A stretch of DNA of 47,392 nucleotides, from contig JALCCG010000138.1 in NCBI GenBank assembly GCA_023212695.1, positions 9,332-56,723 of the forward strand, in the 5' to 3' direction. Positions 3,601 to 34,543 of the stretch are shown here, in pieces (within the stretch, counting starts at the first letter, position 1; every line of letters starts with the position of its first letter). Under the pieces are notes generated by a model that saw nothing but the letters and a program-made list of their open reading frames with translations, was not told where the DNA came from and made no database searches. A program made the position numbers and the translations under genes. Origin of the DNA: Sporisorium sorghi. Its lineage: Eukaryota > Basidiomycota > Ustilaginomycetes > Ustilaginales > Ustilaginaceae.

Positions 3601-3640
<40 letters not shown>

Positions 3641-4900: not shown

Positions 4901-5414
4901 ACACACAATGCAGCAGCAGCAGCAGCAGCAGCAGCAAGTAGCAGCCCAAAAGCAGCCCAAAAGCAGGTCCCGATTGTGGCTTGACACGAGCAACGAGCAG
5001 AAAAAAAAAGAAAAAGAAAAAGAAAAGCGGCTTCTGCAGCTGTTGATTTGTCAAATCCACTCGACCAGAGTACGGTTCGCGACGGCGGTTCCGATGTCGA
5101 ATGTGGCTGCGGTTGCGGTTGGCTGCTGCAGACCTGAGGTAGAGCACAGACGAATGCTCTGCACGGTCCCCTATGCGCCGGTTCAAGTCGCGCCCGAGTT
5201 GAATGAGATGGAATGTGAAAGTCGTTTATCTTTGAAGCAAAAGAGAATGCGGAAGCGAAGAGAGCTAGTCGAGAGGTGCAGTGTTGTCGCGTGTTGCTAG
5301 CGTTGTGCTGTGCGAGAGTGTAAGTGTGCGTTGTGTGCGGTTTGTGCTGTGTGCTCTGTCGCAAGCAGCTGCTTGGTGGATGTCGAGGAAGAAAAGGATG
5401 GTGGTGAGATGAGA

Positions 5415-5437
5415 GGAGAGAGAGAGAGAGAGAGAGT
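5415..5437. repeat. GA dinucleotide microsatellite
   Basis: A short (GA)n tract in the upstream region of the kinase-Elp5 gene. On the gene's strand it reads as (TC)n, like the CT tracts seen near other starts in this window. Confidence 0.8.
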
Positions 5438-5971
5438 AAAGAGAGGTGTGGATGATGGAGTCGCAGTCGAGGTTGAGATTGAGGACAGCCAAGTGACGAG
5501 GAGCAGCACCCTTCATTTGCACTGTGCAGGGGTTGCAGTTCAGGCGGTTGAGTGGCAGCACTGTTGCAACAGCACAAAGCGTGTTGGGAGATTTCACACA
5601 GCTGAGCGAGTGACACCACCACCACCACAAAGAAAGAAAATAAAAATAAAAATAAAAAGAAAGAAATCGGCAGCACACCGCAATGCGTCGAGACTGGGAG
5701 AAAACACAAAAGGACAAAACAGCAGCGTGTGAATGGGTCGACTTTCGATTTTCAACGCGAGTCCCATAGAGTGGTGCAGATCGAGGCAGAATGAGAATTT
5801 TCGAGAATTTTTCTTAAAAAAAAAAAAAAGAATCCGCGCATCGTCACCGGCCATCCTCCTGCGGTCCAGCCATTTCCCATTCAGGGCTCTCTCCTCAAAA
5901 AATCAGGGTGTCGTCTCTGTCATCCAAAACCAAAATCAGGCGGAACCTCAGAGTGACATCTCTCTGCCTCC

Positions 5972-5996
5972 TTTTTTTTTTTTTTTTTTTTTTTTT
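5972..5996. repeat. T25 homopolymer
   Basis: Uninterrupted T run in the gene-poor region, followed by a shorter T11 at about 6054. Confidence 0.9.
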
Positions 5997-6348
5997 ACCG
6001 GAAATTGAAAAATTTAAAGCGCATCCAAGCTGCACATCTCTTTGTGCTCGATTCTTTTTTTTTTTTTGGGGGGTAGAGTGAGCCCTTCCTTCATTTCCGC
6101 GTGGATCTTTCTGCAAAAGAAAAAAATAAATAAAAAATGGGGAGGATCCAACAACCAACGAACGCGCCGCCGCCCCTGCCCAAATCCAACCGCCTTTTTC
6201 TTTTGTTCGTTGACCATTGACGATCGCGCTGCCTCGCTTGGATGAACCTTGTTCACTGAGCCGAGGCTTCGACCACGGCTTTGCTGATCGAGCGAATGAA
6301 TCCATCGCCTCGTGGCTCAAGTTTTGACACTCCGAATCGGGCAGCTGA

Positions 6349-6371
6349 GAGAGAGAGAGAGAGAGAGAGAG
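6349..6371. repeat. GA dinucleotide microsatellite
   Basis: Perfect (GA)n tract of about 23 bases in non-coding sequence. Confidence 0.85.
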
Positions 6372-7409
6372 GCCATCGCATTTGGGAAAGTGGGCGGTAG
6401 TGATGCTGCTGTTGGGGCTCGTCAACTGTATCGACCGGGACAGGCAAGAATGGCAACGGGAACGCGGCCGGGAAGGGAGAGCTTTTTGCAATTTTTTTTT
6501 TTTTCTCTCAATGCTGCCCGCTCTGCGTCCCGACAGAGAGTGAGGCCATTCGGAGAAACATCTGCCCGTTCGCTCTACACCTCGTGACAAGGCTCTTTCT
6601 AACAATGTCACGCAGAGGTGGCGTTCGCAAAGGAATCATGCCGAGCGAACAGCCACATCGACGGACGAAAAGCGAGCGTCGCCGTGTCACACGCGCGGTC
6701 CGAGAACCGACCGGTCTACGACCTTTTCTTTTTTTCTTTTTTTTTCTTTTTTTTTTTTTTTTTCTCTCTCTCTCTCAATTCTTCTCACAGTCTAGCCCCT
6801 TTATTTTGTTCATTATGGTCAGACATGCTCATGGTCAGAGAGCCACGAACGTGTGTGATATGCCGAGCAGGGTATGCTGCATAGCATCTGTTGAGATTGA
6901 CCGGCTGGCTGTTGGCACGGATACCTGCGTGTGTTTCGGCCCTAAGCCGTCCGAGTTGGTAAAGGTGTGCTGCAGCTGGCTTTGGATCTGGCATGAAAGA
7001 AAAGAACGAATCCGCATCTGGTTGCAGGGTGTTTGTCGCGACCTGCTGGGCTTTGCTTGATCGGCAATCTCTATCTCTCTATCTTTGCTTGTCGTGCTCG
7101 GCCTTGTGCAGCAACATGGCTCTGATACTGTATCTGGTCGGCATAAGTGGCGTGCGCGTGGCAAGGCATCTGTTTGGTGAGCTCCTTTGCCCATGCTAAC
7201 ATCGCTAGCTCGTGGAGCTTGATTACTGTAGTGCCCTTGCACTCACAACCCGCCACCGCTTCCTCTGGTTTCCTAAGACCGCTTTCCTTGCGATCGACGC
7301 CTCGATCCTCTCTCTCTCTCGCTGACGTGCATCGGAAGTGTCGAAACATCAACCTCGGTACTCGGCAAGCTTTGATTGACAGCTTACGAATTGAGGGTCG
7401 AAGCTCCCC

Positions 7410-7410
<1 letters not shown>

Positions 7411-7440
<30 letters not shown>
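7411..7440. repeat. A30 homopolymer
   Basis: Uninterrupted A run preceded by five C, in the gene-poor region. It could be a retroposed poly-A tail, but no target-site duplication or recognisable parent was found. Confidence 0.9.
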
Positions 7441-7441
<1 letters not shown>

Positions 7442-7876
7442 AAACCAACCAAGCTGTGCGTAGATATGAAGCAGGCATGCAGGCACGAATTGTTTTCCAT
7501 CAACCAGCGCGCGCGCTTGCTGCTTGCATTGTCTGCACTAGCAGCGTGGACTAGCGTGGAACCAACGCTTGGCTGTGCGTCGTCGGTTCAATATCTTGAC
7601 TGTTCAGCCCAAGTTCTTGGAAGCTGCTTTTGATAAGCTCGCATTTGCTGAACAAAGAGATGCCTCAATGTTGGTGCACATGACGACGATGCGAAAAAAT
7701 AATAATAATAAAATAAAATCTCCGGCATGAAAGAGTGCGGTCGAACTGTTGATGCAATTTGCAGAGGAGCCACTGCGCTACTGCTCGATCAATCGTGCCT
7801 TTTGGTGAGCGCCACTTTTCTGCAAGCTCGACCGAAGAGCGACAGAGACGCTGTGGCGTTTCTAAGCCACATTTCT

Positions 7877-7881
<5 letters not shown>

Positions 7882-7909
<28 letters not shown>
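7882..7909. repeat. T28 homopolymer
   Basis: Uninterrupted T run in the gene-poor region. Confidence 0.9.
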
Positions 7910-8796
7910 CTCCTTTCCCTCACTCTTATCGTCTTGCATTGAGGCTGTTCTAGCGTGCAGTCCAGGGAAGTGCACGACGGCATACGTGGCTGTGTGTGTC
8001 AGATGATCTTCGCATCTGCTTCAGCATTTTTGTTTGTTGGGCCCTCTCTCTGAACAAAACTCTTGCAGAAAATCCGAGCAGCAACCGAACTGTCACCGCG
8101 GCGGCTCTTCTCGCTCTCTCTCTCTCTCACCTTCTCCCACCTTGCTAACGCATCATCCTCGCCCAGTTCGGCCGAACATGAAGGCCAAGTGGGGGCCGAA
8201 AGCGCCAAGCCCTTCATGTGGAACTTTCCGCGCGCGGCAACAGTGCCAAAACTCGGCATTTTTTTTTTTTTGTTGACCCGCGGCGGTTTCCGTTGCTCCG
8301 TTGGCCGGTCGGCTCTCTCTAGTCTCTGAGACTGCGGTGAGTTGGCTGATGGCGTGCGCGCAGGATGGAGCAAGACGTCGCCGGATTAAGCTCGTCCATG
8401 TGTTTCGCACAGTTGCGTTCGCCACCGCTTTACAGGTCGCTGTCAAACAGAGGGCGATTGTAGTCAACACCTGCCATCGAGTTTGAACCGCATCCATCCA
8501 AGCTTTGCGACAATACATGTTTGAACAACATCAATGCGAGACATTAGACAGCCTAGTGCGAGTAGCAGAGCCCTTTGCGTATAGCCTGCACACCGTACAG
8601 CGCGGGGACAGCATGAAAAGAAGCCCCTAATGCCAAACCCTGCATCCATGAACCAAGCGAGTCAACATCATTTCAACGCAAGAGCGAGCCAGCCGCATGC
8701 AACCGCTCCCCACCTTCGCATCGACTGACGCTGGCACAGGAGCCAGACGCGAGGACGCTCGCATTATTCCATCTCCGCAACACTTAGAAACAAAAC

Positions 8797-16928: not shown

Positions 16929-19900
16929 ATGAGGTTCGTTTTCGTCTTCGCCGCCATCTACATCCTCATTGCGGCTGTGGCGTGCCAGCCTCTGCGCGAA
17001 GCCAAGGCCGAGCTCGAGCTCAGCAAGAGGTTCAACCGCAAACCTCCCGACCGATTCAAAAAGGCTAGACCAGCTACATCCAAGGTCAAACGCGTAAGTA
17101 TCGCGCACATCTTTTCGAATGCCACTCGAAGCGTGTCTTGCTGACCTCGGCGTCTCCTGCTGTGTCACAACAGGAATTCCAAGCATTTGAATCGGTGGCC
17201 GAAGCCGCCTCTGACTTGTTTTCTCGATTCGGCGCCCGTTTCAGAAGTAGAAAGGACGCCGTTCAAGCCACCGAGGAAGCTGTTCCCTTTACACAGCCCA
17301 AAACCAAGCCTTACCCTCGACCCAACACGGAACCGGATGCAACCGAGCCGTTCCTGAAGCATCCTCAGCAGCGATACGAGTTCCACGGCAACGAAGGCGG
17401 CTATACTGGCGATGTCGACCGCGACAATCAGCGAGCCAAGCCGTACGATCGGCCTCCTTTGACGTTTAAACGAGAAAACGATGTGGCCGACACGAGCAAG
17501 GCCGACGCTTCCGTGCAAGACGAGTCGAAAGAGAAGCCAAAGTACAAGCACATGTGGCAGGATCCGAACCAGCGACCTTGGATGGTGGCCGCCGCCTCGG
17601 TCAGTGCAGGCGCCATCTGGTTGATGGCTAAAAACATCAAGCAGGATCTCGAGACGACGCAGTCCCTCAATGCGGCCGTGGCCAGCTCGCAGGCGCAGCA
17701 GTTTGCGGCTTCGCAGCAGGCGCTATCGGAGAACGCGGCGCTCGAGGCGGACGGCCCCAGCTATGCTCCACGTGAGGCTGGTGGCGAGGCGGGTCTTGGC
17801 GTCGGCACAGGGCAGCCTCGCGTCGTCAAGCGCGCCATATCGTTGAGAGTCATTCGCGAAGGTTTGTCGAGGGAGCGTATCGCAAACGCATACAGGAACC
17901 GAATCCAGGATTTCAGAGACCTTCCCTCAGACGTCAAGGGGTTCCTGACGGCCGGGATCGCGGTTGTATCAGCAGCACTGGCGGTTGCGGGTACGATGAT
18001 CTACTTTTACGTCAAGAAATTTCGCAATGCCCGTTCGGATCCCAAGCCCTCGCCTCCGGATGTGACGGTCACGGTGCCAGCGACGCCGCCGTCGCCGCCG
18101 TCGCCACCGCATGCCAAGGCCGAACCAGTCATCCACACCAGTCTCAACAAGCGCTCGGTCCTTCCTCAAATCGACACCTCTCGTCAACATCGACCGTCTG
18201 CTGAAGCTGTCACGAAACAAGCAGCAGATGTTCACGAAGATATCGATCTTTGGAAGAAGATCAAGCACCGGTCCGAACAGACGCACTCGGATCGCCTCGT
18301 TCGGAGATCCCCTCGAACCAGCGGATTCGAGGATTTCAGCAGAGACGGCTTCAATGTCCGCATTCGCGACGCTGTGGCCAGCGTGGTCCTCCTCGGTGTG
18401 ATCGTCGGTACGGCCACCTGGGGAGTGCTCCAGATCCTCGAGGCAAACCGCCACCACGACAGCCAGAAGCACAAGCGAGACGTGTCTGCTTCGTCGAAGG
18501 CTCACGAATTAAGGCGAAGAGGTCTTGAGCTTCCGAACTTTGAGGATTTGTTCGCTGGTTCCAGTCGTGTCGCCGGCTCCGGGCGGGAACTGTCGCAAGT
18601 GGAGAATGATGGCGACAAATATCCCATTGAACAGGCCTTTGAAGCGGTCGTCGGTGTACTGCTTTTGGGTGGAATCACGACTGGTCTGGGGCTCCTGTAT
18701 GTGCATAATGAAAAGCTCAAGCATGACCGCCGCATGCACGTCAAGCAGGATGGACCGCCACCGTCCAACCCTCATCTCAGGCGAAGGGCTGACACAGAGC
18801 GCGAGTTGCAGGAGGCAGAAAGGGATTTCCACCACCACCCACCTTCTTCAGCTAAGATGGGCGAGCGTCTCACAAAGCGCATGGTCCCAGCCGATGACAC
18901 GGACACTCGGTCGGCGGCTCTCCAGCGGAGAGCAAATCGCGAGCTGGTGAAACGAGAGCTCGACCCCCGTAGTCCGGTCGGTGCCGCAGCTTTCATCGCA
19001 CTTCTGATCATCGGCGCCAAGTATTACGGGCAAACAAAGGAGTCAAGGAACGGCCGCGAAAAGCACAAACCAGATGCGTCGGCACCTTCACCTTCTTCGC
19101 CCAAGACGAAGCGCAGGCTGCATGACGATTTCGCTGTCAAGGAGGGCACTGTCGATGACACTGCGTCGGCAGGTCTCCAGCGAAGAGCGGTTGCAGGAAA
19201 GAGGCTAGGAAGAGGCGCCGAACAAATCGTGGCCTACGCCATCGGTGGTCTGCTCGTTTACGGACTCTTTTCCAAGGTCCGTGCAGCTGTCATGGATCGA
19301 CAAGACCCCGAGATCAAACGTGCAAGGTACCCGCCAGGTGCACAGCCACTCATAGCTGAACCTCCTTCGCGCAGGATGGGCCAGCGCATCACCAAGCGCA
19401 TGGTGACGGCGGATCGGGCATTGGAGATGAGTAGCATGGCTTCTCCTGGTCCGAATGAGCACGACACGGCTTCTTTCCTGCCTGTCGATCATGCTGGCAG
19501 TGCTGCTGCTGCCCCAGCTGTTGCTTCTGCTCCTGCTGCTCGTGCTCATGCAACGCGACATGCAGTCGAAGCGGGCATCCAGCGGGAAAGACTGCATGAG
19601 ATGGCCGCAGAAGTCAGACATGCATTAAGCCAAATCACGGTCCACAGAGCTCGCATCACCCTGTTCGCACTGCCCATCATCATTGCCGGCCTCGTTGCCT
19701 GGCTCGTATACGATGTTGTCAAGCATCCAGACGGCAGAGATGACGATGAAGACAAGAACAAGTCTCATGCGAACCCTCCATCTCCTCGACGCAAACTCGG
19801 CGAGCGGCTTGCGAAGCGCATGGTCAGAGCGGATCGAGCCGTCGAGATGGGCAACATGGCCGATCGAGATCTAGCTCCGCTATCGCCAGAGTTGGATCCC

Positions 19901-22900
19901 GTCGAGTCCTATGTCTCTGACTGGGAAGACAGATTGGCTTGGCCGCTGATCATTTCTGTCGCTGCGACCGCAGGTACCTGCATCGCTCTCATGGTGACCG
20001 GAGGTCGCGAGATCTGGAAGGAGCTTCACGAAAAAGACGACGACGACGAAGTAGACGATAAGCCAAAGTCGCAGCCACCTTGGCCACCTCACAAGCTTGC
20101 CAAGAGCGAACCGATTTTCCGACGAGGGCTGCTTCAAGACGATGCCGAGGCTCGACGTGCTTCGAACAAACACCTCACGAAGCGCATGTTCCAGGCGCCC
20201 GTTGTCGAGGAAGATCCTCGCGTTTCGTCCACAGTCGTCCCATTCGACGGAAATGAGCGGGCTGTAGTCGATCCTGCTCTTGCAGAGGCTCTGCCGGCTG
20301 GAGAGGGTAGGCTGATGAATCCGTTCGTCGTCATCCCGGCAGCTGCTGCGCTTACCGGCATCTGCTCAGGTGCGGTGATTGCCGTGATCGAGTACTTCAA
20401 GAAGCAACATCATCGGGCCGACAAGTCACCTCCTGCATCGGCCACTCCTCCTCACAAGCTTGCCAAGCGCGCCCTCTTGCAGCGCCGAGACCTGATCACA
20501 GGCTCGGCCTCGTCTGGCAAGCATCTCTCAAAGCGATCGGAACTCCAGTCAGTCGGGGAGGAGGTGGGAGAAGCGCACGCTGCGGAAGCGCCTCGTGTCT
20601 CTTCCACTGTGGCCCATCATAAAGATGGAGCCCCTAGTCTCATTGAGGATAAGGCGCGAATCACTCAAACGTCCGCCGCCAAGAAGACAAGCGCTTTTGT
20701 CCAAGCCGGTCAGCGATTCAAGTCAGGAGCGGCACGAGTCGGCGACCATCTTTCGCGCGGCCGGAACCTCGAGATGTGGCTCGTTGGCCCGCCTTTTCTC
20801 GCCTGGGTCATTTATGCGAGCGTGGAATTGACCAAAGAGAAGATCAGGTTGAATAAGGAAGAGAAGCACCTTCCTAAGGAGGAGCCAGTTTGGGCGGTGG
20901 AGCCCAACTTGCGGAAGCGTGGCTTCTCAGCATCCGAAGCTCAGGCGGTTATCAAGAAGACCCAAGATCTGGCTCGGAAGGGCGGGAGGGGGCTCGGTGC
21001 GGCAGGGGAACGAGTCAGCGAGCATCTCGACGACAATGCAGATGCCTACACTCTCTTGGCGGGAATCTTAGCAATAGGCGGACTTGCCGGACTCGCTTTT
21101 TGGGCTAACCACCATGGCCCTCTTCGAGATCTTCATCCAAGGTCCCATTTGTCGAAGCGTGGCCTCTCACCATCCAATGTCAAAGTTGTCGCCGAGGAGA
21201 CCGACGCATTGGCTCAAAAGGACGGAGAGCGGCCGGATATCGCCATGCAACGAGCCAGACGCTTCATCATCCGTCACAAGCAGGGAGAGCTCTATGCTGT
21301 CCTGATCGCTGTGCTCGCATCCACCGTCGCGGGTGCCAGCTGGGTGATTGTTGACCACATCAAGCATCAAAAGCAGAAGGAGAGGCAAGCGAGCCATGCT
21401 TCCGTCCTGCAAGCAGAGCAAGCAGAGCAAGCAGAGCAAGCAGAGCAAGCAGAGCAAGCAGAGCAAGCGGTTTACGGCAATACTCTCTCAAAGCGCGCCT
21501 TGACCCTCGCCGATCTTGGAAACGTCTCTGACGAAGCCATGACGGCGATCAGGATGGTAATTCGAAGGTGGCGCAGGGCGATCATTCGACGTCGATACCG
21601 CGGTCGTCCGCCTCTTCCTGTTCACCGACTCGGTGGTGAGCGGCAGGCGCCACGCGTGCCATGGAGGGCCATCGGCGTAGAAACTGCACCGTACCTTGCG
21701 ATTGCAGCTGGAGGCGGGCTCCTATCCTGGCAGCTTGCTCCACTGATCAAGGAGCTAGTTAAAAGGCAAAGGCAAAGGAGGCTGGAGCGAGAGAATCGTG
21801 CGCTGCACAGGTACCTTGGCGAGCACGAGGATGCTTCACGCACTCAGCACAGCAACAATCTCTCCAAGCGTGCTTGGCCCGCCGATGCTCTTCGAAACGC
21901 ACCGGAAGGCGCGATGCAGGCGGTCAGGATGGTCGTGCGAAGGTTCCGAAGGGATCCCTACGAGCGTCTTGGGCGCCATCGTCCGGCAATGCCCGAAGTG
22001 AGGATTGGTGCTAGGCCAGCTGCTCAACCTCGATGGAGGGCAATCGCTCCCAAGCCTGCAGCTCTCGTTGCTGGTGCGGTGATCGGCACAGCTTTCTACT
22101 TGAGTCTTCGCCTCGCAGCGGAAACGGCTAGACGAGAGCAAGAAAGGGAGGACCGCGCACAGCTCAAGTATCGTCAAGAACACGAGGCGGCCGAGCGTAC
22201 GTTCAATTCGCAGCACCGGCTCTCGAAGCGAGGAAAGGGTCTGCTCATGCAGCTCGCGGAACTGACCGAGCAATCAGCTGCTGATCTCAAAAGCCTTGTC
22301 CGTAAGACGCCAATGACCGACGAGAAAAGGCAAGCTCGAAACGGCAGGTTGCGTAAGCTTGGCGGCATTGTGCTCGTGGGAGCTACTGTCGAGGCTCTCA
22401 AGAACTTCCTCTTGTACGAAGGCATCAAAATGCACGTACACAACAAGGAACGCCAGCGCTTCGATGACGAATTGCGTCGAGAACAGCAAGCGCAGCAGCA
22501 GAGCATCTATGGTGCATCCTACCCACAAGGAGGCAGCACCGTCGCTTCTGCCTCCGCTCCGGGCTACATGGCGTCGACTACTTGGAGCAAAGCGTCGGTA
22601 CAGCTTCGAAAGCGTGCCAAAGTCGAACCGGCAGATTTGCAACAAATGGATAGAACGGTCGAGAGCGCCCCTCCAGGCTATGGGCGTCGGGTGCTCGCCA
22701 GCAAGTTGCGAGAGAAATCGGGTGAATTGAGCAGCGCACTCGGCGAAGCAATGCACAAATACCGCTGGCCCATAGGCGGGGTATTGGCGGCAGCTCTCGT
22801 CGTAGATACTGCTTATTTGGTCTGGACACTAGAGGGCTCAGCTGTACCTCATTGGCTCCAGCCAAAGGCTCCAGCTTCGAGCTCGAACGGAAATCTTCAC

Positions 22901-25588
22901 AGGCGCCACCTCGACGTCGTCGACGAGCCTCTCTATCCGGATCTTCGCAAGCGAGGTGTCAGCGCCGTTGCTCCGCTTGAAGAGCACGCCGTCCGGGCAT
23001 CAGTCGTGAGCGCGCCTCCATACCAAGGACTCCGTGAGCTCGGAAAGGAGCTCGGAAGGAAGGTCGAAGATCGAGCCCACACGATAGGGAAGAAAGTAGC
23101 TCCTATTGCTACATCCGCACTCGCGGTCGCGGCGTTTGTCGGCGTCATTTACGGAGTGAGGAAGCTTGCCGAGCATCTCGCGAAGAAGTATCCTGATCAA
23201 TTCAGGCCACACTACCCAGCTTCTAACTCAAACGGACACCTTGGCAAGCGTCAGCTCCATCGCCGCGAGCTGATGACATCCGAGACCTTCCTTCAGCGCT
23301 CTGCTCTGCTTTACAAGCGGGGTGGTGCCGAATCGGTGGCAGAGGCGGCGGAAGCTGAAGAAGCTGGCGAGACCGTTGCTCACGTGCAGTCAGCGGAGGA
23401 GGCTCGCGAGGCCAGAGCTCGGGAGCTGCAATCCTACGTAGAGGCTCAGCGCCGGAAAGCACACCAGCGCGATAAGCGCTTCTACGGAGCGCTGGCTGCT
23501 GTCATGGTACCCTATCTGACAGCAGTTACCGTATGCTCGTTCACGGACTGTATGAACCTGCATCCTGAAGGGTCTCGCGCTCCAGCTTCCAACTCGAACG
23601 CGGAGCTCCACAAGCGCAAGCTGACCTCCGATGCGCACCTGACGCCGCTTCAGAAGCGAGACAAAGGAGTGGAGCAGGAACAGGGGCCGGAGCTGGCGAC
23701 GCAAGTTACGCAAGAGGTCGCCCCCACCGGATTTCGTTTCACTGAACCGTTCGTGCCCACCAGGCCTGACCGCTGGAGGGCTCCACCACTCAGAGGGCCC
23801 CCGACTGCGATGGAGGGAGCCAAAGGCGTCGCCATAGTCGCTGGTGTGTATGTTGGACTTCTTACTTTTCTCGGTTCGATTGCGGGTCTTGGCTTCTACT
23901 TTGGCGAGAAGGGGTCGCAAAAGGGTTCGGAAGAGCACAGAAGGTCTCACCCGGAGCACGGGAACCTTCACAAGCACGAGCTCGCCTCGAAGACTTTCGA
24001 AGGTCACCTGGCGCCGCTTCAAAAACGATACAACATCGGACAGGTGCCGGAGATGGCGGAAGAGGCCAGGGCTGCATTCGACCACTTGAGGACGGAACAG
24101 GCAAGGTTGTTGGCGCGCATCGCCGCTCAGGAACAAACACCGCGAGAGATGACTATGAAGGAGAAGATTCGGGCTGTTGCCATACTCGCTGGTCTGGGTA
24201 CTGGATTAGTCACGATCTTTGGCGGACTTGCGGGTCTTGTCGTCTGGCTGGGCATCCAGGCGGGTCAAGCGGAAGACGACAAGGAGCCCGAGAGAGACCA
24301 TCGCCTGCGTGGGCAGTCTTCTCCGCTTCACAAGCGATGGTACGCCGCGGAGTCGGCCAACCAAAACCCACCCGACGTTAGTTCCTGGACGCAAGACCAG
24401 AGACAGGCACAGCCGAGCGCAAGGGAGAGGGACACCGTCTTTGACAAGGTCGCTGGTGCAGCTGATGGATGCGCGTCCTTCCTCGCGCCGGTGGCTACGG
24501 TCGCTGCGGCCGTTATGTCAGTCGCATACTACAAGGAGCGCAAACGCACCAAGGCGCTAGAGGCGAAGGACGCCCAGGAGGAGCAGGCTGGGCGGTGGCG
24601 GCTGGGCAAGCGCGAGGTCTCGGCATCGATCCAGAAGCGCGGCTTCGTCCCACAGCTGTCAACGGAGTTGGGGGTGGACGCAGCCACGCTGAGAGCGCGC
24701 CTCAAGCCGATCGCAGCGGAAGAGCGCAAGTTCCGCTACAAGATGATTGCGCTCGGCGTTGCGTTGGTCGCTGCGGTCGCTGCAGTCGCCACGCCACTGA
24801 CGTACTTTGGCATCCGCAAGAGCAACGACGCACGCAGGCAGAGAAACCAAGAGGCGGCTCAACATCTTCGCAAGCGCGCGCTGCTCGAAAAGCGCATGGT
24901 CGAGCCGTTGCCCACAGCAGCCGTGATGCTGCGCATGCTGCAGCAGGTCGCTTTCAAGTCGCGCGGAGCGGGCGCGTTTGACCTGTTCGGTCTGGGTCCC
25001 CCACAGCACGTTACTGGGCCGCACCACCTACACGTGCAGCAGCGACCGCATCGTCGTCCTGCCGATACCTCTGCTTCGCCTGCCGATCTGGCTCGCATCG
25101 CTGAGGACGTGGTGCGCGGTCCTAGGCACGAGCAGGCCCAGCCGACGCTGCAGAAGCGCATGGTGCAGGCACTGTTCAAAAGCGACGAGGCGCACGTCGA
25201 CTCTGCCTCCGCTGGCGATCTGGTCCGCATCGCGCGTCAGGTGGTGGTTGGCCCGAGAACCCACGACGGCGACCAGCGACTGCTGCGCAAACGTGAGCTG
25301 CACAAGCGCATCGTCGCGGACGCCGGGCTGTACGAACCGTCGAAATTGGTCATGCTGAGGGTGATCAGGCAGATTGCGATCGGTTCGCATCGGTCGGACA
25401 TCCTCGCCGTGTTTGACGACGATGACTATGATGACGAGGATGATGTTGAAGCGCCTCTGCCGAGACAGCCGGTGCACAGGCACCCGTCGCATCCGTTGAC
25501 GTCTGCTTCCCCCGCGGATCTGGCTCGCATCGCTCGCAATGTGGTTTTCGCGCGAGGGCGCAACGGCGATGAAGGTCGCAACCAGTAG
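16929..25588 (+). CDS. giant secreted Kex2-type polyprotein with about 22 hydrophobic cassettes (CDS with one intron)
   Basis: Coding sequence joins 16929-17093 and 17174-25588, giving about 2,859 residues. The first 20 residues are a signal peptide (hydrophobic core VFVFAAIYILIAAVACQ). The rest is a long series of diverged units: a polar or amphipathic stretch, one hydrophobic segment of about 20 residues, a charged tail, then a dibasic site, usually Leu-x-Lys-Arg (LSKR, LAKR, LTKR, LHKR, LRKR, LGKR, LQKR). I count about 22 hydrophobic segments, the first near 17580 and the last near 24780, and about 34 dibasic sites. Leu at P4 with Lys-Arg at P2-P1 is the favoured Kex2 site. The tail after about 24890 has no hydrophobic segments but five related motifs, three of type SASPADLARIAR. 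The nearest concept is the family of Kex2-processed repeat proteins such as smut Rep1, but I know no described protein of this size and layout. Function unknown; a surface-active or membrane peptide set is a guess. Confidence 0.8.
17094..17173 (+). other. intron of the polyprotein gene (phase 0)
   Basis: An 80-base intron starts GTAAGT (17094-17099) and ends ACAACAG (17167-17173), with a branch-point match GCTGAC near 17138-17143. Splicing joins codon 55 (CGC, Arg) to GAA in frame and connects the signal-peptide exon to the long frame. Without it the first exon runs to a stop at 17142-17144. The upstream exon ends precisely after a Lys-Arg site. Confidence 0.9.
21410..21469 (+). repeat. tandem 9-bp repeat encoding Ala-Glu-Gln
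   Basis: About six nearly perfect copies of GCAGAGCAA inside the polyprotein gene give a run of Ala-Glu-Gln triplets just before an LSKR site. It keeps frame and is probably variable in length between strains. Confidence 0.9.
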
Positions 25589-26460: not shown

Positions 26461-26512
26461 CCATCACTTGCACCACTCAGAGCCAGGACCACCGAGCTGA
26501 CATGTTATCACA

Positions 26513-27283
26513 ATGGCACCGGTCGCAGCATCGAGCGTCTGCGCCATGCCGCCTTCAACATCGGACGTGGCGATCTACGTCGTGAACCCGAACAGTTCCG
26601 CGGTGATCACTTTGGCGCTATGCAGCAACCTGTCGTCGCAGGTGCCGCCGGGGTGCAGTGCGCACTTTGTGACGGGCCCAGCGAGCGCGCCGGCGAGCAT
26701 CCAGGACGTGAGCGAGTCCGTGATCTCGGCAGCCGAGACGTTCCGCGCGCTCGTCTCGGCTTCGCCCGGTGCGGATCTGGCGCAGCATCCAGCGTCGGCG
26801 TTTCTGGTAGCGTGCTTCAGCGACCACCCGCTCGTCGGGATGCTGCGGTGCAAAGCGCCCGGGAAGCCGGCGATGCATCTGTTGGAGGCGGCGGTGGTGC
26901 ATGCGCTGAGTGCGGGGGAGCGTTTTGGTGTGCTGACCACGGGCCGGGGGGTGGTGGGCGATGTCGAGGCGGGCGTGAGGAAGGTGTTGGGGGGCAATTC
27001 GGATCGGTATGCGGGGACGCACGCGACCGGGTTGGGGGTGGTCGAGTTGAGGGAGGGGGAGAGGGACAAGGTCGAGGAGAGGGTGAGGAGAGGTGCGCAG
27101 GATCTGGTGCGGAGAGGGGCTGATGTGATCGTGTTGGGGTGCGCGGGGATGACGGGCATGGAGGCGCTGGTGAGGAGGGCGTGCGAGGAGGTGGTGGGCG
27201 AAGGGGTGGTCAAGGTCGTGGATGGCGCAAAGGCCGGGTTGCAGATCTTGGCGGGGCTGGCGAGGGTTGATTATCGCGGCTAG
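26513..27283 (+). CDS. Asp/Glu/hydantoin racemase family protein, Dcg1-like
   Basis: 256 residues, normal for the family. The fold is recognised from the N-terminal strand IYVVNPNSSA, the first catalytic-Cys segment VACFSDHPLVGMLR (Cys101), GERFGVLTTGRGVV, and the second catalytic-Cys segment VIVLGCAGMTGMEAL (Cys210). Two Cys acting as acid and base on opposite faces of the substrate is the mechanism of this superfamily. Yeast Dcg1 belongs here and is linked by regulation to allantoin and nitrogen catabolism; its substrate is not settled. The start at 26513 fits the TATA distance; Met at 26546 is an alternative that still keeps the domain. The gene follows the polyprotein gene on the same strand after about 0.9 kb and has its own promoter. 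Confidence 0.85.
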   Translation: MAPVAASSVCAMPPSTSDVAIYVVNPNSSAVITLALCSNLSSQVPPGCSAHFVTGPASAPASIQDVSESVISAAETFRALVSASPGADLAQHPASAFLVACFSDHPLVGMLRCKAPGKPAMHLLEAAVVHALSAGERFGVLTTGRGVVGDVEAGVRKVLGGNSDRYAGTHATGLGVVELREGERDKVEERVRRGAQDLVRRGADVIVLGCAGMTGMEALVRRACEEVVGEGVVKVVDGAKAGLQILAGLARVDYRG

Positions 27284-29156: not shown

Positions 29157-32100
29157 TCACGTCGCCCCCGGCGGAGCATCCTTCCACGTCGCATTGCCCA
29201 GCCACGCCGTCGCTGCACGCGTGAAATCCCCCGGGCTGCCCTGCGAGCTGTACGCCAAGCGCAGATGGTGCGGCAGCTCCCTCAGCGTCGCATTGCTCGG
29301 CATGCTCGACTGGCTCTGTCCGTCCTGCAGCCTTTCCTCTGCGTACGCATTCGCCAATCCGCTGCTCAGGTTGAAACTCGTCGCCGAGCCCTGATACCGC
29401 AGCACGTCGTCCACCAGCAGCGCAAACCCGTCCCAGTCTGCACTCAGGCGAGACGGGATCGCGTTCCACTGCACCACGCCTCCAGCTGACGCCCACGTGC
29501 GCGAGCTCGTGTTGAACGTCGGCCGCGCAGTTCCCCCCGTCGCATCGCCCTGCACCACCGCGTCGTCCTCCAGCATCCCATCAAAGCCCCACCGCGCCAC
29601 ACCGTTCGTAAACATGCCCAGGCAGAACGCAATGTACACCAAGCACAGCCGCGTCCGGAACGCACACGCCGGCAGCAGCACCAGCGCGATAATGTAGTGG
29701 TGCAGCCGCAGCGTCTCGCCCGGCACGGCTGCTGCTAGTCCGACCAGCACGCCGCCGACAATGTACAGCGATACGTACTTGGCCAGCCAGCCCGTCTTCC
29801 ACATGACGCGCACCTGGTTGACTGCGATCACCAGCACCACCACTGCGAGCACGATCACAGCCACCACGCTGCCTGGCTGCTGTGCAATGTCCCGCGCCAC
29901 CAGCCGCTGGATCGGCACTTTACCGAATACCACGTTGAGCAGCACGCCCAGCCACCAGAACGCCAGCGTCCAGAATGTAGCCTCGACAGGCACGTGCGCA
30001 AAGGCCGGCCACACGAACCGGAACGCCAGCCGCCAGATGACGTAGCACGTGAAGAGAAAGGGCAACAAGGTGCCAAACGCCGCGCCGATCGGAGGCGGAT
30101 AGTCGCGCGGATACGAGACCAGCGTGATGTGCCAGAAGCCCACGCACGCCAGCGTCCAGAACCACACGATGCGCTTCGGACGCAGCACAAAGCCGACGAA
30201 CGCAGACATGATTGCATTGACGACATAGCCTTGCCAGCGTCGATCTGTGCATTCCCCTTCGCCTTGCGTCGATTCGAATCGGTAGCCCATGGGAAACGCC
30301 GAGTCAAACCCGATCGAGTCGATGCCGTTCGCTTTGCTCGCCTCGAAACCAGCATGTGCACCGATCAAGCGCACCGAGCCGCAGCCTCCCTTGGAGTTCC
30401 TGATCACGCCAGCGTGGATCGCAGCAGCGCATACGAATGAATCGGCGCGGTACGTGCCATTCGCATCGCCACCACCGACCACCAGCGGCTCGTAGTTGAC
30501 CCTCTGATCGCCCACCGCACGCGGGTTGAGCAGCGTCACATCGATGCAGTTGGCTGGACAGCGAAACGCCTGCCCCACTTGGCCGGCCGCAGTGAAGAAC
30601 GGCTCGCACTCTTGCCCGTCCAAGCCGCACTCGGCGTTGCGCAGCCAGTATGTCGACGTGCATGACAGAAACGCAGGCGTGCGCGAGACACCGTCAAAGC
30701 CTACGACGGCCGACTCGTACCACAGCGATTTAGCTAGATAGGCAAAGCCCAAGATCCAGCCGATGTAGATGAGACACAGCACCACCCAATGCAGCCTGTT
30801 GAGCTTTGTGTCGGCCACAATGGCTCGCCACCACGCCAATGCTGGCTGCACGTCGTCTTGAAGATAGTGTTGCTCGCCAAGCTGGCGATCCGAGTTTGAG
30901 AGTTGATCATGCCTTTCAGGGTCTTTCCATGCAAACGGATGGGTGAGTTGGGCCCATTTGCGCTCAACGCGCGCTAATGGCCACCAACGGTAATGGCGAA
31001 TGTTGAGACGCGCCGACGGCTTAGGGCCAAGCACCCACTTGCGAGCTCGTCCCGTGCCGCTGCCGATGCGAAAGCGCGCTCGTCCTGATCGTGAGCTCGT
31101 TGCGGCTTGGGCGTGAGGATCAGCAGCGTCGTCCTGATAAAACATGGGCTCGACCTCGGGCTGCAAGCCGAGTGGCGTCAGAGGAAGCATGCTCGTCTTC
31201 TTGATGGGATCTGGCGGTGTGGATCCGACCAAGCTGCCGCTCCGACTCGAAGAGCCAAGCGCACTTTCCTCGTGCGTTGTTTCGATCTCGTGGTCCCTGG
31301 ATCGGGCCAGCGGGTTGAGGGAGAACATGATGTCGCTCGACAAAGTGATGCGTTCGCCTTGCTGAGATGGTGTTATCGCGTCGTGGCCGTCATCGATCGT
31401 GTATCCTTGCACTTCTTCTTGCGGTACATGGTTTCCGTTGGTTTGTAAAGCATCGCCGACGGCTGAGCTTTCTTTCGCACCCTGGCTGGCGGGCTCCAGA
31501 GGCGGGCCAAGACCTCCAGGATACCCCTCGAGCACCTCCCTCCATGCAGGCGCTGTCGTCGTGACACGCATCTGCTCGCTGAGCGATCTCGGGTGCAGCA
31601 CGATAAAGCACGAGTAGAAAGGGTGCTGCTGCGTTCGCAACGCCTCGAGCTCGTGCGCCGAAGCATCGCTGAGGACCTTTCGCGTCTGTTCCGAGTACGG
31701 TCGGCGGCTCATCTCCTTGAGAAGCCACTGGACGCTGTCCATGTTGCTAGTGAGCGTCGTCATGCCGTAGCGCGCGCAGGCATGCATGGAGCGCAGTGTG
31801 GTATACGTCTGTCCGCCAGCCTGATGCACGGTGCTCTGGCGAAGCTTCTTGTACTTGCTTCTGGGCAAGTCTTCGGAAATGTCTCGCCAATCTGGGCCCC
31901 ACAGCTCGCTGAGACAGCTCTCGAGCGTGTCGATCATGTGCGAGATGTAATGGGCCCGAGGCAGATCCGGGTACACCTCTTTGAGCCGGGAAAGCGACTG
32001 GAAGCCTCCAGGCCCGAGATCTTGCAGAGGCTGGATGGGGAGGAGAAGGCACCTTCGCAGTTCTTGGTGCTCTGGCCCAGCCCATTTGGAACGCTGCCAA

Positions 32101-33887
32101 AAGTCTTGCGGATCGACACCTGCATCGCCGAGCAGAGCTTTGACTCTGCGCTTCTCGTTGGGCCCGCCGACGGTGGAGCTGACGCGACGGAGGCGGCCGA
32201 ACGCGCCGACGGTTGCATACAATTGTACAGGCGTGCCTCTCTCGGTATCTCGACCCCAGATGGGACCGAGGATAGCGTCAAAGAGCGTCTCGACGGTCAT
32301 TTCGCGCTCGAGCTGGATGGCGAGCGCCCTGCCTTCCTTGGCTGCTGCATTGTCGAGTGCGCGCGACGCCTCATCCTGCTGGTCATCCTGCAGAGATAGC
32401 TCGGCGGCTCTGGCCTCGAGCGCTTCTTTGCGGATGGAAAAGGTGCGAAAGTGGTGCTGGTAGAGGGCGCCAGAGCCGTGCTCACCGTCGTCGAGCTTGG
32501 GGTGTCTCTTTGTTTGATCTAGCAGAGCGTCTCGCGCGCTGTTTTCGCGGAAGCGACCGTGGGTAGTGTCGCTGACGAGGGCAATCATGGCTGTGACGTC
32601 GAGGTTGATGTTTCGAGTGGTACACCAATGCGGCCGAGCGGGCGCTTGAGGAATGCTGGGCAAGCTCATGGCTTGGTCCGGGCTGGAAGTCAAGCCGATA
32701 CTTGGAGGGAGATGGTGCTGCAGGATGCTGGAAGGTAGCTGTCGATAGCCAAAGACCATGTCGATGTTGTGGTTGTGCGCTTCTTGCGTGATGGCAGCGA
32801 GTCGGTGGTTGAAGCGATCCCACTCGGACATCTGGTAGAACTCGGCGAGCGCAGCCTGTTTGCCCTTGTCGACGATGGAAGGAAGCGGCTGAGAGGGAGA
32901 CTGCAGCTCCATGCGAGTGACGACGATCTCGACGTGGATGGGCACAAAGGGGAGCTTGCGGCCGTGCTCTTCGGATCGTTGGACGCGTGCTCTGGCTTCG
33001 GTGTCTGCTGCGGCGCAAAGTTCGTGTACGAGTTTGGTGAGCGAGCACTTTTTCGCGGCAATGTCGTACGCAAGCGATTCCGGGAGAGCTTCGGCACGGT
33101 CATTCGCAGTAGCTGATGGGATGGCGTTTGCTTTGGCGTCGACGGTGCACTTTGCGGTGTGTTGGTGCTCGTGGAAAGAGTCGGCGGCGGCATCAGTGTG
33201 ACTGGATGTCTCTGGATCGTCATCGTCTGACGCAGATGCATCGCTCGAGTCGTCTTGGTCGACCATGTAGCTCTCGGCTTCCCTGAACTCCTGTCGCAGA
33301 CGCTCGGGCTTGATGATGTAGAGGCGAGTCCAGCGATCGCCGTTCTGAGAGACGACATCGACCTTGACGCTCTGGCTGTTGATGTGTTCGTTTCGAGGCT
33401 TGCGCATCTTGTTCTTGCGCCGCAGAGCTGCCGACATGCTGAAGGCGAAGCGGTCCTGTATGGAGAGGATAGGTCCGAATGTGAAGGCGACGTAGAGGAC
33501 CTCTTCCCAGAAGCGGATGTGATGGGTGCCGTTCGAGTAAGGATGAGGCTCCTGCCAGCTGCCCCGTTCAGCTGCGAGTCGTTCGAGAGCGGCAAGCTCG
33601 GACTCGACCTGACTGCGGAGCACGGTGAGACCTTTGATCGAGGTGGAAGCTAGGATGCGTTCGCGATGCTCCTCCCACCTGGGACCAGAGATGGGGCAGT
33701 AAGCTCGAGCCAAGGTCTCGGCGTCGGGATGACATTGCGAGGAAGAAGCGATGAGTGCTGGACCGAAGCTGTAGGCAGGAGCGAGGGTGAGCCAGGCTCG
33801 ATAGGTGTTGGCAAAGTGTTCGATCGAGTCGTGCACGACTTGGAGGCCATCGCGCATGCGCGAGGCTGGGATCGAAGCAGCCGGCAT
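29157..33887 (-). CDS. DUF1308 protein fused to an LCCL-domain multi-pass membrane protein
   Basis: A single frame of 1,576 codons. Residues 1 to about 775 match DUF1308 (the C7orf25 family): KVDVVSQNGDRWTRLYIIKP, VEIVVTRMELQSP, INLDVTAMIALVSDTTHGR, and the family end FIVLHPRSLSEQM. A Ser/Glu/Thr-rich linker follows. From about 950 (RKWVLGPKPSARL) the protein resembles fungal LCCL membrane proteins: one span near 1030-1053, an LCCL domain at about 1095-1205 with CPANCIDVTLLNP, YRADSFVCAAAIHAGVI and GGCGSVRLIG, then about seven more spans to about 1450 and an extracytoplasmic-looking tail with N-glycosylation sites. LCCL domains are Cys-containing extracellular modules; DUF1308 has no established activity. 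The two halves are normally separate. An internal start for the LCCL part or an unrecognised intron or stop error could separate them; none is visible. Confidence 0.75.
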   Translation of the reverse strand: MPAASIPASRMRDGLQVVHDSIEHFANTYRAWLTLAPAYSFGPALIASSSQCHPDAETLARAYCPISGPRWEEHRERILASTSIKGLTVLRSQVESELAALERLAAERGSWQEPHPYSNGTHHIRFWEEVLYVAFTFGPILSIQDRFAFSMSAALRRKNKMRKPRNEHINSQSVKVDVVSQNGDRWTRLYIIKPERLRQEFREAESYMVDQDDSSDASASDDDDPETSSHTDAAADSFHEHQHTAKCTVDAKANAIPSATANDRAEALPESLAYDIAAKKCSLTKLVHELCAAADTEARARVQRSEEHGRKLPFVPIHVEIVVTRMELQSPSQPLPSIVDKGKQAALAEFYQMSEWDRFNHRLAAITQEAHNHNIDMVFGYRQLPSSILQHHLPPSIGLTSSPDQAMSLPSIPQAPARPHWCTTRNINLDVTAMIALVSDTTHGRFRENSARDALLDQTKRHPKLDDGEHGSGALYQHHFRTFSIRKEALEARAAELSLQDDQQDEASRALDNAAAKEGRALAIQLEREMTVETLFDAILGPIWGRDTERGTPVQLYATVGAFGRLRRVSSTVGGPNEKRRVKALLGDAGVDPQDFWQRSKWAGPEHQELRRCLLLPIQPLQDLGPGGFQSLSRLKEVYPDLPRAHYISHMIDTLESCLSELWGPDWRDISEDLPRSKYKKLRQSTVHQAGGQTYTTLRSMHACARYGMTTLTSNMDSVQWLLKEMSRRPYSEQTRKVLSDASAHELEALRTQQHPFYSCFIVLHPRSLSEQMRVTTTAPAWREVLEGYPGGLGPPLEPASQGAKESSAVGDALQTNGNHVPQEEVQGYTIDDGHDAITPSQQGERITLSSDIMFSLNPLARSRDHEIETTHEESALGSSSRSGSLVGSTPPDPIKKTSMLPLTPLGLQPEVEPMFYQDDAADPHAQAATSSRSGRARFRIGSGTGRARKWVLGPKPSARLNIRHYRWWPLARVERKWAQLTHPFAWKDPERHDQLSNSDRQLGEQHYLQDDVQPALAWWRAIVADTKLNRLHWVVLCLIYIGWILGFAYLAKSLWYESAVVGFDGVSRTPAFLSCTSTYWLRNAECGLDGQECEPFFTAAGQVGQAFRCPANCIDVTLLNPRAVGDQRVNYEPLVVGGGDANGTYRADSFVCAAAIHAGVIRNSKGGCGSVRLIGAHAGFEASKANGIDSIGFDSAFPMGYRFESTQGEGECTDRRWQGYVVNAIMSAFVGFVLRPKRIVWFWTLACVGFWHITLVSYPRDYPPPIGAAFGTLLPFLFTCYVIWRLAFRFVWPAFAHVPVEATFWTLAFWWLGVLLNVVFGKVPIQRLVARDIAQQPGSVVAVIVLAVVVLVIAVNQVRVMWKTGWLAKYVSLYIVGGVLVGLAAAVPGETLRLHHYIIALVLLPACAFRTRLCLVYIAFCLGMFTNGVARWGFDGMLEDDAVVQGDATGGTARPTFNTSSRTWASAGGVVQWNAIPSRLSADWDGFALLVDDVLRYQGSATSFNLSSGLANAYAEERLQDGQSQSSMPSNATLRELPHHLRLAYSSQGSPGDFTRAATAWLGNATWKDAPPGAT

Positions 33888-34543
33888 GGTGTCACAGCAG
33901 CTGCGTGGCGGTACTGCTCGTCGTCGTCGTCGTCGTCGCCGCCGTGGTCGTCGTTCGCCTCGCTTCCGCCGCCATTCGTCGAGAGAGCGTGAAGCGAGAA
34001 GGGAAGAAGCGAAGGAGCAGCTGAGCGACAGACGAATTGCTCAGTCGAGTGTGACAGAACAGAAGAAAGAGCGCCGTTGCCTTGCTTTAGTCACCCTTCT
34101 GTTGGAATCGCAAGTGGAACTTCCGAACTTGCTTTGCTCGTGTGCCTTCTCGAAAAACTGGAATTGGTCGGCAGGAATGCCGAAAAAAAGCGGCACAAGA
34201 TCGCAGAGTCGCGCTTCTCAAGCGTGACTTTAGCAAAGACACGCTTGCAGCACGCTTTCTTCAGGTGATTGTGGAGGAGAGATCCCTTGATCAAAACCTA
34301 ACATTGACGGATTTTTTTCGGGATGACCTTCTCTTGCTCTGCTCTGCTCTTCGTCGTCATCAGCAGCATCCGCCCTCTAACACAGCCCATCGACAACATA
34401 CACACACACACACACACACACACTGCAAAGCCAACTCTGAAAGAGGAGGAGACGTCTGTGTGATTAGCGCAGTGCAGTAGAAAACAAAAGCAGATCCATC
34501 GGATGAGGTGTTGCTATAGAATAAATATTTTGGCAGCAGCAGA
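33888..34543. other. intergenic region between the fused DUF1308-LCCL gene and the alcohol dehydrogenase
   Basis: Holds a (GTC)n trinucleotide tract (about 33919-33945) just upstream of the DUF1308-LCCL start, and a CA microsatellite (34401-34423). No gene is supported. Both neighbours are on the minus strand, so this is promoter for one and 3' flank for the other. Confidence 0.6.
34401..34423. repeat. CA dinucleotide microsatellite
   Basis: Perfect (CA)n run of about 23 bases. Confidence 0.85.

What the first reader, a model, noticed from the sequence alone, without database searches (positions are those of the whole stretch)
16929..25588. A 2,859-residue secreted polyprotein of about 22 hydrophobic cassettes, each bounded by Kex2 sites
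Seen directly: a signal peptide, one short intron, then a single open frame of 8.4 kb with repeated order of polar stretch, one hydrophobic segment, charged tail, and Leu-x-Lys-Arg. About 34 dibasic sites occur, most with Leu at P4, which established work shows is favoured by the Golgi protease Kex2. Known Kex2-processed repeat proteins (smut Rep1, mating pheromone precursors, ustiloxin-type precursors) are far shorter and release soluble or surface peptides; cassettes that each carry a membrane-length hydrophobic segment are, to my knowledge, not described. The units have diverged strongly in sequence while keeping the layout and the cleavage sites, so selection appears to act on processing and hydrophobicity, not on exact sequence. 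Inference: the gene encodes a family of hydrophobic peptides released together.
Basis: partly seen in the sequence, partly recalled or inferred. Interest (0 to 1): 0.92.

Follow-up and report, generated by a model that had tools for sequence, protein, structure and literature searches.

The report
Giant Kex2-cut hydrophobic peptide precursor
A smut fungus gene encodes one very long secreted protein that looks built to be cut, at sites kept over evolution, into about 22 different peptides, each with a single membrane-length greasy segment; it belongs to a fast-changing family in smuts that surveys of such precursors may well have passed over.

Summary
Exon 1 (16929-17093), an 80-bp intron and exon 2 (17174-25588) give 2,859 residues: a signal peptide, 22 hydrophobic cores spaced 114 +/- 20 residues, and 28 Leu-x-Lys-Arg sites where about 1.3 are expected. 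All 21 gaps between cores carry a Kex2-type site and no site lies in a core. Thirteen related proteins from nine named species share the N-terminus and the layout while sequence drifts. Against S. scitamineum, over aligned positions, the Lys-Arg of LxKR is 78% kept, cores 32%, the rest 43%. Leu at P4 marks 61% of KR but 9% of RK (10 proteins pooled). U. nuda carries four exact 116-residue copies of one cassette, showing the evolving unit directly. The genome has a kexin. The Kex2-polyprotein reading is strongly supported by sequence; cleavage, expression and activity are not shown. Kex2-processed repeat proteins are a known kind, and Ece1/candidalysin and Rep1 are precedents for hydrophobic or amphipathic products. 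New are the scale, one membrane-length core per unit, and extreme divergence. I favour secreted membrane- or surface-active peptides. A multi-pass membrane protein fits poorly, because cassettes come and go singly.

The parts
16929..17093 (+). Exon 1: signal peptide (residues 1-19/20, about 16929-16985), first LSKR site (residues 31-34) and a basic stretch ending KVKR
   Evidence: AVACQPLR at the signal-peptide end is shared by the 13 relatives. Signal peptide judged by hydropathy and conservation; SignalP was not available
17094..17173 (+). Intron, 80 bp, GTAAGT...ACAG
   Evidence: the joined protein matches relatives across the junction
17174..25588 (+). Exon 2: cassettes, C-terminal units and stop
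17174..17833 (+). Cassette c1, exon-2 part (residues 56-275; c1 = 35-275): long polar N-part, WQDP..RPW motif, core 190-210, then a Gln-rich stretch; many invariant columns in the three-protein alignment
17834..18154 (+). Cassette c2 (residues 276-382)
18155..18520 (+). Cassette c3 (383-504)
18521..18955 (+). Cassette c4 (505-649)
18956..19186 (+). Cassette c5 (650-726)
19187..19399 (+). Cassette c6 (727-797)
19400..19819 (+). Cassette c7 (798-937)
19820..20185 (+). Cassette c8 (938-1059), paralogue of c9
   Evidence: z 11.5
20186..20536 (+). Cassette c9 (1060-1176)
20537..20920 (+). Cassette c10 (1177-1304)
20921..21160 (+). Cassette c11 (1305-1384), paralogue of c12
   Evidence: z 6.9
21161..21496 (+). 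Cassette c12 (1385-1496), holds a 9-bp minisatellite
21497..21871 (+). Cassette c13 (1497-1621): cationic amphipathic stretch, linker, long predicted helix (hydrophobic then charged)
21872..22231 (+). Cassette c14 (1622-1741), paralogue of c13
   Evidence: (z 8.9)
22232..22615 (+). Cassette c15 (1742-1869)
22616..24337 (+). Cassettes c16-c20 (1870-2443), tandem paralogues whose only invariant columns in a five-row alignment are L, K and R of the C-terminal LxKR
24338..24613 (+). Cassette c21 (2444-2535)
24614..24877 (+). Cassette c22 (2536-2623)
24878..25585 (+). C-terminal type-2 units (2624-2859): no core at the threshold, boxes VMLRVxRQxA (2 found) and SASPADLARIA-like (3 found), still set off by LxKR

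Best explanation
The gene encodes a secretory polyprotein that is a string of independent peptide cassettes. Inferred route: the precursor enters the ER by its signal peptide; polar and charged stretches around each core keep it manageable; in the late Golgi the kexin cuts after Leu-x-Lys-Arg (and some Leu-x-Arg-Arg), probably followed by trimming of basic residues; about 22 different peptides of 40-140 residues, each with a polar or amphipathic N-part, one Ala/Val/Leu/Gly-rich core and a charged tail, reach the cell surface or the plant-fungus interface and act by entering or coating membranes or surfaces. Shown by sequence: layout, site conservation, cassette duplication and loss, a kexin gene in the genome. 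Inferred: cleavage, secretion, membrane or surface action. The confidence is for the cut polyprotein with one core per core product; three of the rivals below are versions of its last step.
For: Site enrichment and even spacing. Site conservation over divergence, aligned positions only: WIN vs S. scitamineum LxKR K/R 36 of 46 (56 in the protein, 10 in unaligned stretches) and P4 Leu 17 of 22 (28 in the protein), against core 107 of 337, other K/R 121 of 283, other Leu 55 of 122, rest 638 of 1501; partner cores stay hydrophobic (mean KD 1.73). Pooled over 10 of 14 proteins: P4 = Leu at 165 of 272 KR, 32 of 209 RR, 11 of 119 RK, 6 of 63 KK, background 8.6%, matching the Kex2 preference in PMC8528282 (passages). 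U. nuda P0012: four exact tandem copies of a 116-aa unit with one core, LAKR and LSKR; U. hordei P0007: exact 221-aa duplication. Kexin: an 815-aa frame with Peptidase_S8 and P_proprotein, the only P_proprotein match in the genome. Membrane or surface action: one core per released core peptide, GxxxG 10 vs 4.9 in shuffled cores (p 0.009, one of two motifs tested), cationic amphipathic stretches in c10, c11, c13 and c14, helices in a c13-c14 model. Precedent for neighbours shielding a hydrophobic peptide: Ece1p (PMC12153327 passages).
Against: No transcript, proteome or cleavage data were available. The interval test alone is modest (p about 0.01 in the window) and not significant taken singly for S. 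graminicola and the five Ustilago entries tested; S. graminicola 8 of 9 and U. bromivora 6 of 7 intervals have a site, and one site falls inside a core in each of the three U. hordei entries. 27 of 49 fragments have no core, so hydrophobicity is not the whole product. Small-xxx-small is not enriched (p 0.12). Amphipathic stretches beat shuffles at 0.05 or less in 9 of the 21 cassettes tested, and the best window was pre-selected, which favours this. The AF2 model of a relative is unusable (pLDDT 32); in the c13-c14 model the most confident part is a charged tail, the core blocks being at 47-79. In two of ten pairs other KR were kept better than those of LxKR: P0001-P0004 16 of 20 vs 10 of 16, P0002-P0003 10 of 10 vs 23 of 24. 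A member in Pseudozyma hubeiensis, known to me (recalled) as a yeast-like anamorph, speaks against a role in plant infection alone.
Confidence: 0.75

Rival explanations
1. Uncut polytopic membrane protein: the 22 cores span the membrane in alternating directions and the dibasic motifs are mostly membrane-flanking charges.
For: Length and hydrophobicity of several cores; UniRef names P0001 and P0006 'Transmembrane protein'.
Against: KR with Leu at P4 is enriched far above other basic pairs. Canonical sites lie in intervals of both parities; only intervals 1 and 6 lack L-x-[KR]R, though half of the loops would be cytosolic. Core number changes by odd and even steps (22, 23, 15, 14, 10, 16, 16, 10, 8, 8, 7, 7) and single-core units duplicate exactly in U. 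nuda, which would flip everything downstream. Flanking charge does not alternate (by eye).
Confidence: 0.08
2. Version of the best explanation: the products are a hyphal surface coat like the Rep1 repellents; hydrophobic peptides self-assemble on the wall, and sequence hardly matters.
For: Same group of fungi; Rep1 peptides are Kex2-released, amphipathic and fibril-forming (PMC4617103 passages). Cores drift to 32% identity while staying hydrophobic.
Against: Products are about twice as long as Rep1 repeats (median 96 vs 34-55 aa); the c13-c14 model is nearly all helix or coil, though without an alignment. Rep1 itself was not fetched or compared.
Confidence: 0.3
3. Version of the best explanation: the products are membrane-permeabilising peptides acting on competitors or host cells, like candidalysin.
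For: One hydrophobic core with a charged tail per core product, GxxxG enrichment, cationic amphipathic stretches in four cassettes; strong divergence and cassette turnover.
Against: No activity data; candidalysin is one 31-aa peptide of eight in a 271-aa precursor (passages); products here are longer, and 14 of 22 core peptides have a net charge within 3 of zero.
Confidence: 0.35
4. Version of the best explanation: Kex2 separates a family of small single-span membrane proteins that stay in the fungus's own membranes.
For: Core lengths 19-33 residues with charged flanks; 9 of 22 cores at or below 0.7 on a simple insertion scale whose values are recalled.
Against: All junctions would have to face the lumen, so cores must cross without integrating or insert with one shared topology after cutting; many cores are only marginally hydrophobic.
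Confidence: 0.15
5. Chance open frame or misassembled repeat.
For: One 9-bp minisatellite lies in the frame.
Against: 13 relatives from 9 named species, the Sporisorium ones collinear with the window over most of their own length; the racemase domain encoded just downstream is fused to the U. bromivora annotation.
Confidence: 0.01

Closest known systems
Kex2-processed repeat proteins (KEPs; Le Marquer 2019 PMC6339444, Umemura 2020 PMC7329392)
   Same: Signal peptide, dibasic sites between repeated units, fungal, often plant-associated
   Different: Units are long and mostly unalike within the window, each with one membrane-length core. Umemura required repeat scores above 0.6 and repeats not over 100 aa (methods section read); Le Marquer discarded proteins whose motifs covered under 15% of the length (passages)
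Rep1 and Hum3 of Ustilago maydis
   Same: Smut, Kex2-separated amphipathic or hydrophobic peptides
   Different: 652 and 828 aa with 31-55 aa repeats (passages) against 2,859 aa and median 96-aa products; no hydrophobin domain found in exon 2 (no Pfam match over cut-off)
Ece1p / candidalysin of Candida albicans
   Same: Kexin-cut polyprotein with a very hydrophobic product shielded by its neighbours (passages)
   Different: 271 aa and eight peptides of which one is the lytic one; no sequence comparison was made
Nematode polyprotein allergens
   Same: Tandemly repeated polyprotein cut into helical units (PMC3079579 passages)
   Different: Nematode, soluble lipid carriers of compact fold; no relation claimed
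Rsp3 and other repetitive smut effectors
   Same: Secreted, repetitive, length-variable, smut-wide
   Different: Rsp3 is predicted not to be processed (passages) and has Cys-rich and QP regions

Membership tests
KEP (Kex2-processed repeat protein) | Signal peptide | tested here: met
   Hydrophobic N-terminus ending AVAC|Q, AVACQPLR shared by 13 relatives; SignalP not run
KEP (Kex2-processed repeat protein) | Kex2 sites separating at least three units | tested here: met
   21 of 21 intervals; P4 Leu signature
KEP (Kex2-processed repeat protein) | Units identical or nearly identical | tested here: not met
   Window: 11 of 231 cassette pairs at z > 5; c16-c20 share only L, K, R as invariant columns and are 19-31% identical to the first row. 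Met in the relative U. nuda, four exact copies
KEP (Kex2-processed repeat protein) | No repeated unit longer than 100 aa (Umemura 2020) | tested here: not met
   17 of 22 cassettes as I cut them exceed 100 aa; with every KR and LxRR cut, 9 of 22 core peptides do; the U. nuda exact unit is 116 aa. The published program itself was not run
KEP (Kex2-processed repeat protein) | Peptides shown to be released | not testable with these tools
   needs peptidomics
Rep1-type repellent | Amphipathic repeats of 34-55 aa forming amyloid-like fibrils | tested here: not met
   Size only: median 96 aa. Fibril formation not testable
Ece1 / candidalysin | Short (about 31 aa) cytolytic helical peptide ending at KR | tested here: not met
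   Size only: core products 39-140 aa; lysis not testable
Dikaritin / ustiloxin-type RiPP precursor | UstYa (DUF3328) gene nearby | tested here: inconclusive
   No match in the genome, but the control was silent too; none in the 15 other window frames scanned with Pfam, which are not all frames of the window

The most novel reading that the evidence does not exclude
Smut fungi deploy a genetically encoded library of membrane-inserting peptides: one nuclear gene encodes up to about two dozen different single-helix peptides, strung together and cut apart by kexin, whose sequences are free to drift so long as hydrophobicity and cut sites remain. To free every unit, the cell must bring more than twenty hydrophobic segments to the Golgi lumen without fixing them in alternating topology, a translocation feat that none of the papers whose text I saw describes.
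Probability: 0.35. Interest if true: 0.88.

Novelty: new variant of a known kind. Interest (0 to 1): 0.72.

Why it matters
It extends Kex2-processed precursors to very large, strongly diverged arrays with one hydrophobic core per unit, and suggests that surveys keyed to repeat identity can miss a family spread through smuts. It poses a testable topological question: how a chain of over twenty hydrophobic segments is presented to a lumenal protease at every junction. If the peptides are secreted, smuts carry an unstudied, quickly evolving peptide arsenal or surface coat, encoded at one locus.

Tried and rejected
Considered and rejected: chance frame; a single multi-pass membrane protein; DNA tandem array (only short-period arrays, longest unit 18 bp); known domain (no Pfam over cut-off in exon 2; among 11 relatives the racemase part of U. 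bromivora was the only strong match, two others being weak at E 0.0027 and 0.0078; no PDB match to the three-protein profile); ustiloxin-type RiPP (uninformative); paralogues in the same genome (one protein search found only itself). A terminal hydrophobic cassette, which several relatives have, was sought with three of their tails: nothing in the kilobase downstream; the best of the hits (E 0.006) lies on the minus strand at 15397-15269 and is taken as chance.

Led nowhere: AF2 of the 1,131-aa U. hordei form (pLDDT 32); paper search by six locus names (0 papers); paper search with kexin, transmembrane and polyprotein terms (0 papers). The third homologue search missed P0003-P0006, which the second had found, and all three scored only the roughly 8,000 candidates sharing most words, so absence of U. 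maydis or other smuts from the lists is no evidence of absence. The species of the window was not determined.

Full report
What is there. The finding's coordinates and protein length are exact. Exon 1 (16929-17093) and exon 2 (17174-25588) are joined over an 80-bp intron with GTAAGT and ACAG ends to give 2,859 residues. The frame is the only long one in exon 2 and keeps the same ranking of GC by codon position (second lowest) along its length. Exon 2 has no Pfam match above cut-off, and the three-protein profile A1 has no PDB relative.

Beyond chance. Hydrophobic cores: 22 at KD >= 1.3 (signal peptide excluded) against a shuffled mean of 2.7 and maximum of 8, spaced 114 +/- 20 residues, far more evenly than random placement (0 of 5000). 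With stricter thresholds the count falls (17 at 1.5, 13 at 1.8), but every interval still holds a site. Sites: 40 KR against 15.8 expected, 28 with Leu at P4; LxKR is expected about 1.3 times. Every interval between cores has a KR or hydrophobic-x-[KR]R site, 21 of 21 (p 0.0095), and none falls in a core. Full cutting gives 22 one-core peptides and 27 others.

Relatives. Three protein searches gave 13 proteins from nine named species: Sporisorium scitamineum (2,991 aa), S. reilianum (2,043 and a 1,798-aa entry marked partial), S. graminicola (1,630), Pseudozyma hubeiensis (2,267 and 2,274), Ustilago hordei (1,838, 1,133, 1,131), U. tritici (1,528), U. bromivora (1,522), U. nuda (1,730) and U. 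loliicola (1,264). AVACQPLR at the end of the signal peptide is the same in all 13. The Sporisorium relatives are collinear with the window over most of their own length at about 25-45% identity per matched block; the Ustilago entries match only in the first part and one or two later blocks, some only in the first 154 residues. Cores counted in the 12 proteins then in hand (window, then P0001 to P0011) were 22, 23, 15, 14, 10, 16, 16, 10, 8, 8, 7, 7; all intervals carried a site except one in S. graminicola (8 of 9) and one in U. bromivora (6 of 7), and one site fell inside a core in each of the three U. hordei entries. Tested singly, the interval statistic is significant in the window, both S. 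reilianum entries, S. scitamineum and P. hubeiensis, and not in S. graminicola or the Ustilago entries. P0012 and P0013, fetched later, were only mapped. The U. bromivora annotation runs on into an Asp/Glu/hydantoin racemase, and the window has such a gene at 26501-27283, just downstream, so the place in the genome seems kept as well.

Selection on sites rather than on sequence. In the alignment of the window with S. scitamineum, aligned positions only, the K and R of LxKR are kept at 36 of 46 (56 in the protein; 10 fell in unaligned stretches), P4 Leu at 17 of 22 (28 in the protein), cores at 107 of 337, other K or R at 121 of 283, other Leu at 55 of 122 and the rest at 638 of 1501, while partner cores stay hydrophobic (mean KD 1.73). 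Ten pairs were run. In all ten the Lys-Arg of LxKR was kept more often than the cores. In two, other KR were kept better: P0001-P0004 (16 of 20 vs 10 of 16) and P0002-P0003 (10 of 10 vs 23 of 24). Pooled over ten proteins (P0003, P0006, P0010 and P0011 left out as near-duplicates), Leu is at P4 of 165 of 272 KR but 32 of 209 RR, 6 of 63 KK and 11 of 119 RK, background 8.6%. These proteins are related, so the p-values printed there overstate independence. The Kex2 preference for Arg at P1, Lys at P2 and Leu at P4 is given in PMC8528282 (passages).

The cassette as the unit of evolution. Within the window 11 of 231 cassette pairs reach z > 5 (30 shuffles each). Seven of the 11 are direct neighbours (c8-c9, c11-c12, c13-c14, c16-c17, c17-c18, c18-c19, c19-c20); the other four are c19-c21, c2-c22, c3-c15 and c2-c8. 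In the alignment of c16-c20 the only invariant columns are L, K and R of the C-terminal site. U. nuda has four exact tandem copies of a 116-residue unit holding one core, one LAKR and one LSKR; U. hordei P0007 has an exact 221-residue duplication spanning two cores. Adding or losing one core would invert the topology of everything downstream in a multi-pass membrane protein, so this pattern speaks for independent units. The U. hordei entries P0007 and P0011 carry the same locus name and differ in length by 705 residues, so one annotation leaves out several cassettes; without RNA data I cannot say which is real.

Anatomy of a product. A typical product has a polar or amphipathic N-part, a 19-33 residue Ala/Val/Leu/Gly-rich core and a charged tail. 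Amphipathic stretches beat shuffles at 0.05 or less in 9 of 21 cassettes tested, the best window being pre-selected; four of those carry net +3 or +4 (c10, c11, c13, c14). An alignment-free AF2 model of c13-c14 (mean pLDDT 58) gives an amphipathic helix, a floppy linker and one long helix per cassette that is hydrophobic first and charged later; the most confident part (76-95) is the charged tail of c14, while the core blocks lie at 47-79. That is a hint only. GxxxG is enriched in cores (10 vs 4.9, p 0.009), small-xxx-small is not (p 0.12). Not all cores are strong: five have KD under 1.5, and on a simple unweighted insertion scale (values recalled) 9 of 22 are at or below 0.7 and 13 above.

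Processing machinery. The genome holds one P_proprotein match, in an 815-aa open frame with a subtilase domain, as expected of a kexin. A single protein search of the same genome found no paralogue of the polyprotein.

How it most likely works. Signal-peptide entry, Golgi cutting at LxKR, release of about 22 different one-core peptides plus spacers, then action at membranes or surfaces. Everything after the sequence layout is inference. The Ece1p review notes that neighbouring peptides shield the very hydrophobic candidalysin and that removing or altering them provokes an unfolded protein response (PMC12153327 passages); the polar stretches here may do the same. Between a surface coat (Rep1-like) and membrane-active peptides (candidalysin-like) the evidence is close; I lean slightly to the latter because of the helical prediction and product size.

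Known or new. Kex2-processed repeat proteins are an established class, with 7,878 found in one survey (PMC7329392: abstract, background, detection method and passages seen). The stated rules of that survey (repeat score above 0.6, repeats not over 100 aa) and of Le Marquer 2019 (PMC6339444 passages) look set to pass over the window protein; I did not run their programs or see their tables. The introduction of the Rsp3 paper counts fifteen repeat effectors in U. maydis, eight with shown or predicted Kex2-like sites (PMC5923269 passages); I could not tell whether a member of this family is among them. Searches that could have found a description of this family listed no paper that I could tie to it by title, abstract start or the passages I saw; one search listed 20 of 33 papers, and listed papers such as PMC4466345 (S. 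scitamineum genome) and PMC5811872 (selected effectors of S. reilianum) were not opened. I therefore call it a new variant of a known kind: it works like a KEP, but the window protein fails the near-identical-repeat feature.

Noticed in passing
window 26501-27283 (+): Asp/Glu/hydantoin racemase gene just downstream; the same domain is fused to the family member annotated in U. bromivora (P0009), a sign of kept synteny and of a probable annotation fusion there.
   Followed up: partly
window 24878-25585 (+): C-terminal units of a second type without a core at the threshold (VMLRVxRQxA and SASPADLARIA boxes); four copies of each box in S. scitamineum, two and three in the window by pattern.
   Followed up: partly
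window 21409-21468 (+): Perfect 9-bp minisatellite (6.7 copies) coding Ala-Glu-Gln repeats inside cassette c12.
   Followed up: no
P0007 and P0011 (U. hordei, same locus name): Two annotated products of one locus differ in length by 705 residues: either an intron removes several cassettes or a gene model is wrong.
   Followed up: no
P0001, P0005, P0007, P0012, P0013 C-termini: These relatives end in a further hydrophobic cassette after the last LxKR or KR; the window protein lacks it and none was found just downstream.
   Followed up: partly
P0004 (S. graminicola): UniRef calls it a HIG1 domain protein, but the Pfam scan of 11 relatives including it listed no such domain at E 0.01.
   Followed up: partly
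window 662-4822 (-): One 1,386-aa open frame matches both a protein kinase domain and Elongator subunit Iki1; perhaps two genes in one frame or a fusion.
   Followed up: no
window 29157-34040 (-): 1,627-aa open frame with an LCCL domain at residues 1157-1246.
   Followed up: no
window 4001-8000: G+C falls to 0.516 against 0.565-0.627 in the other ten 4-kb blocks.
   Followed up: no
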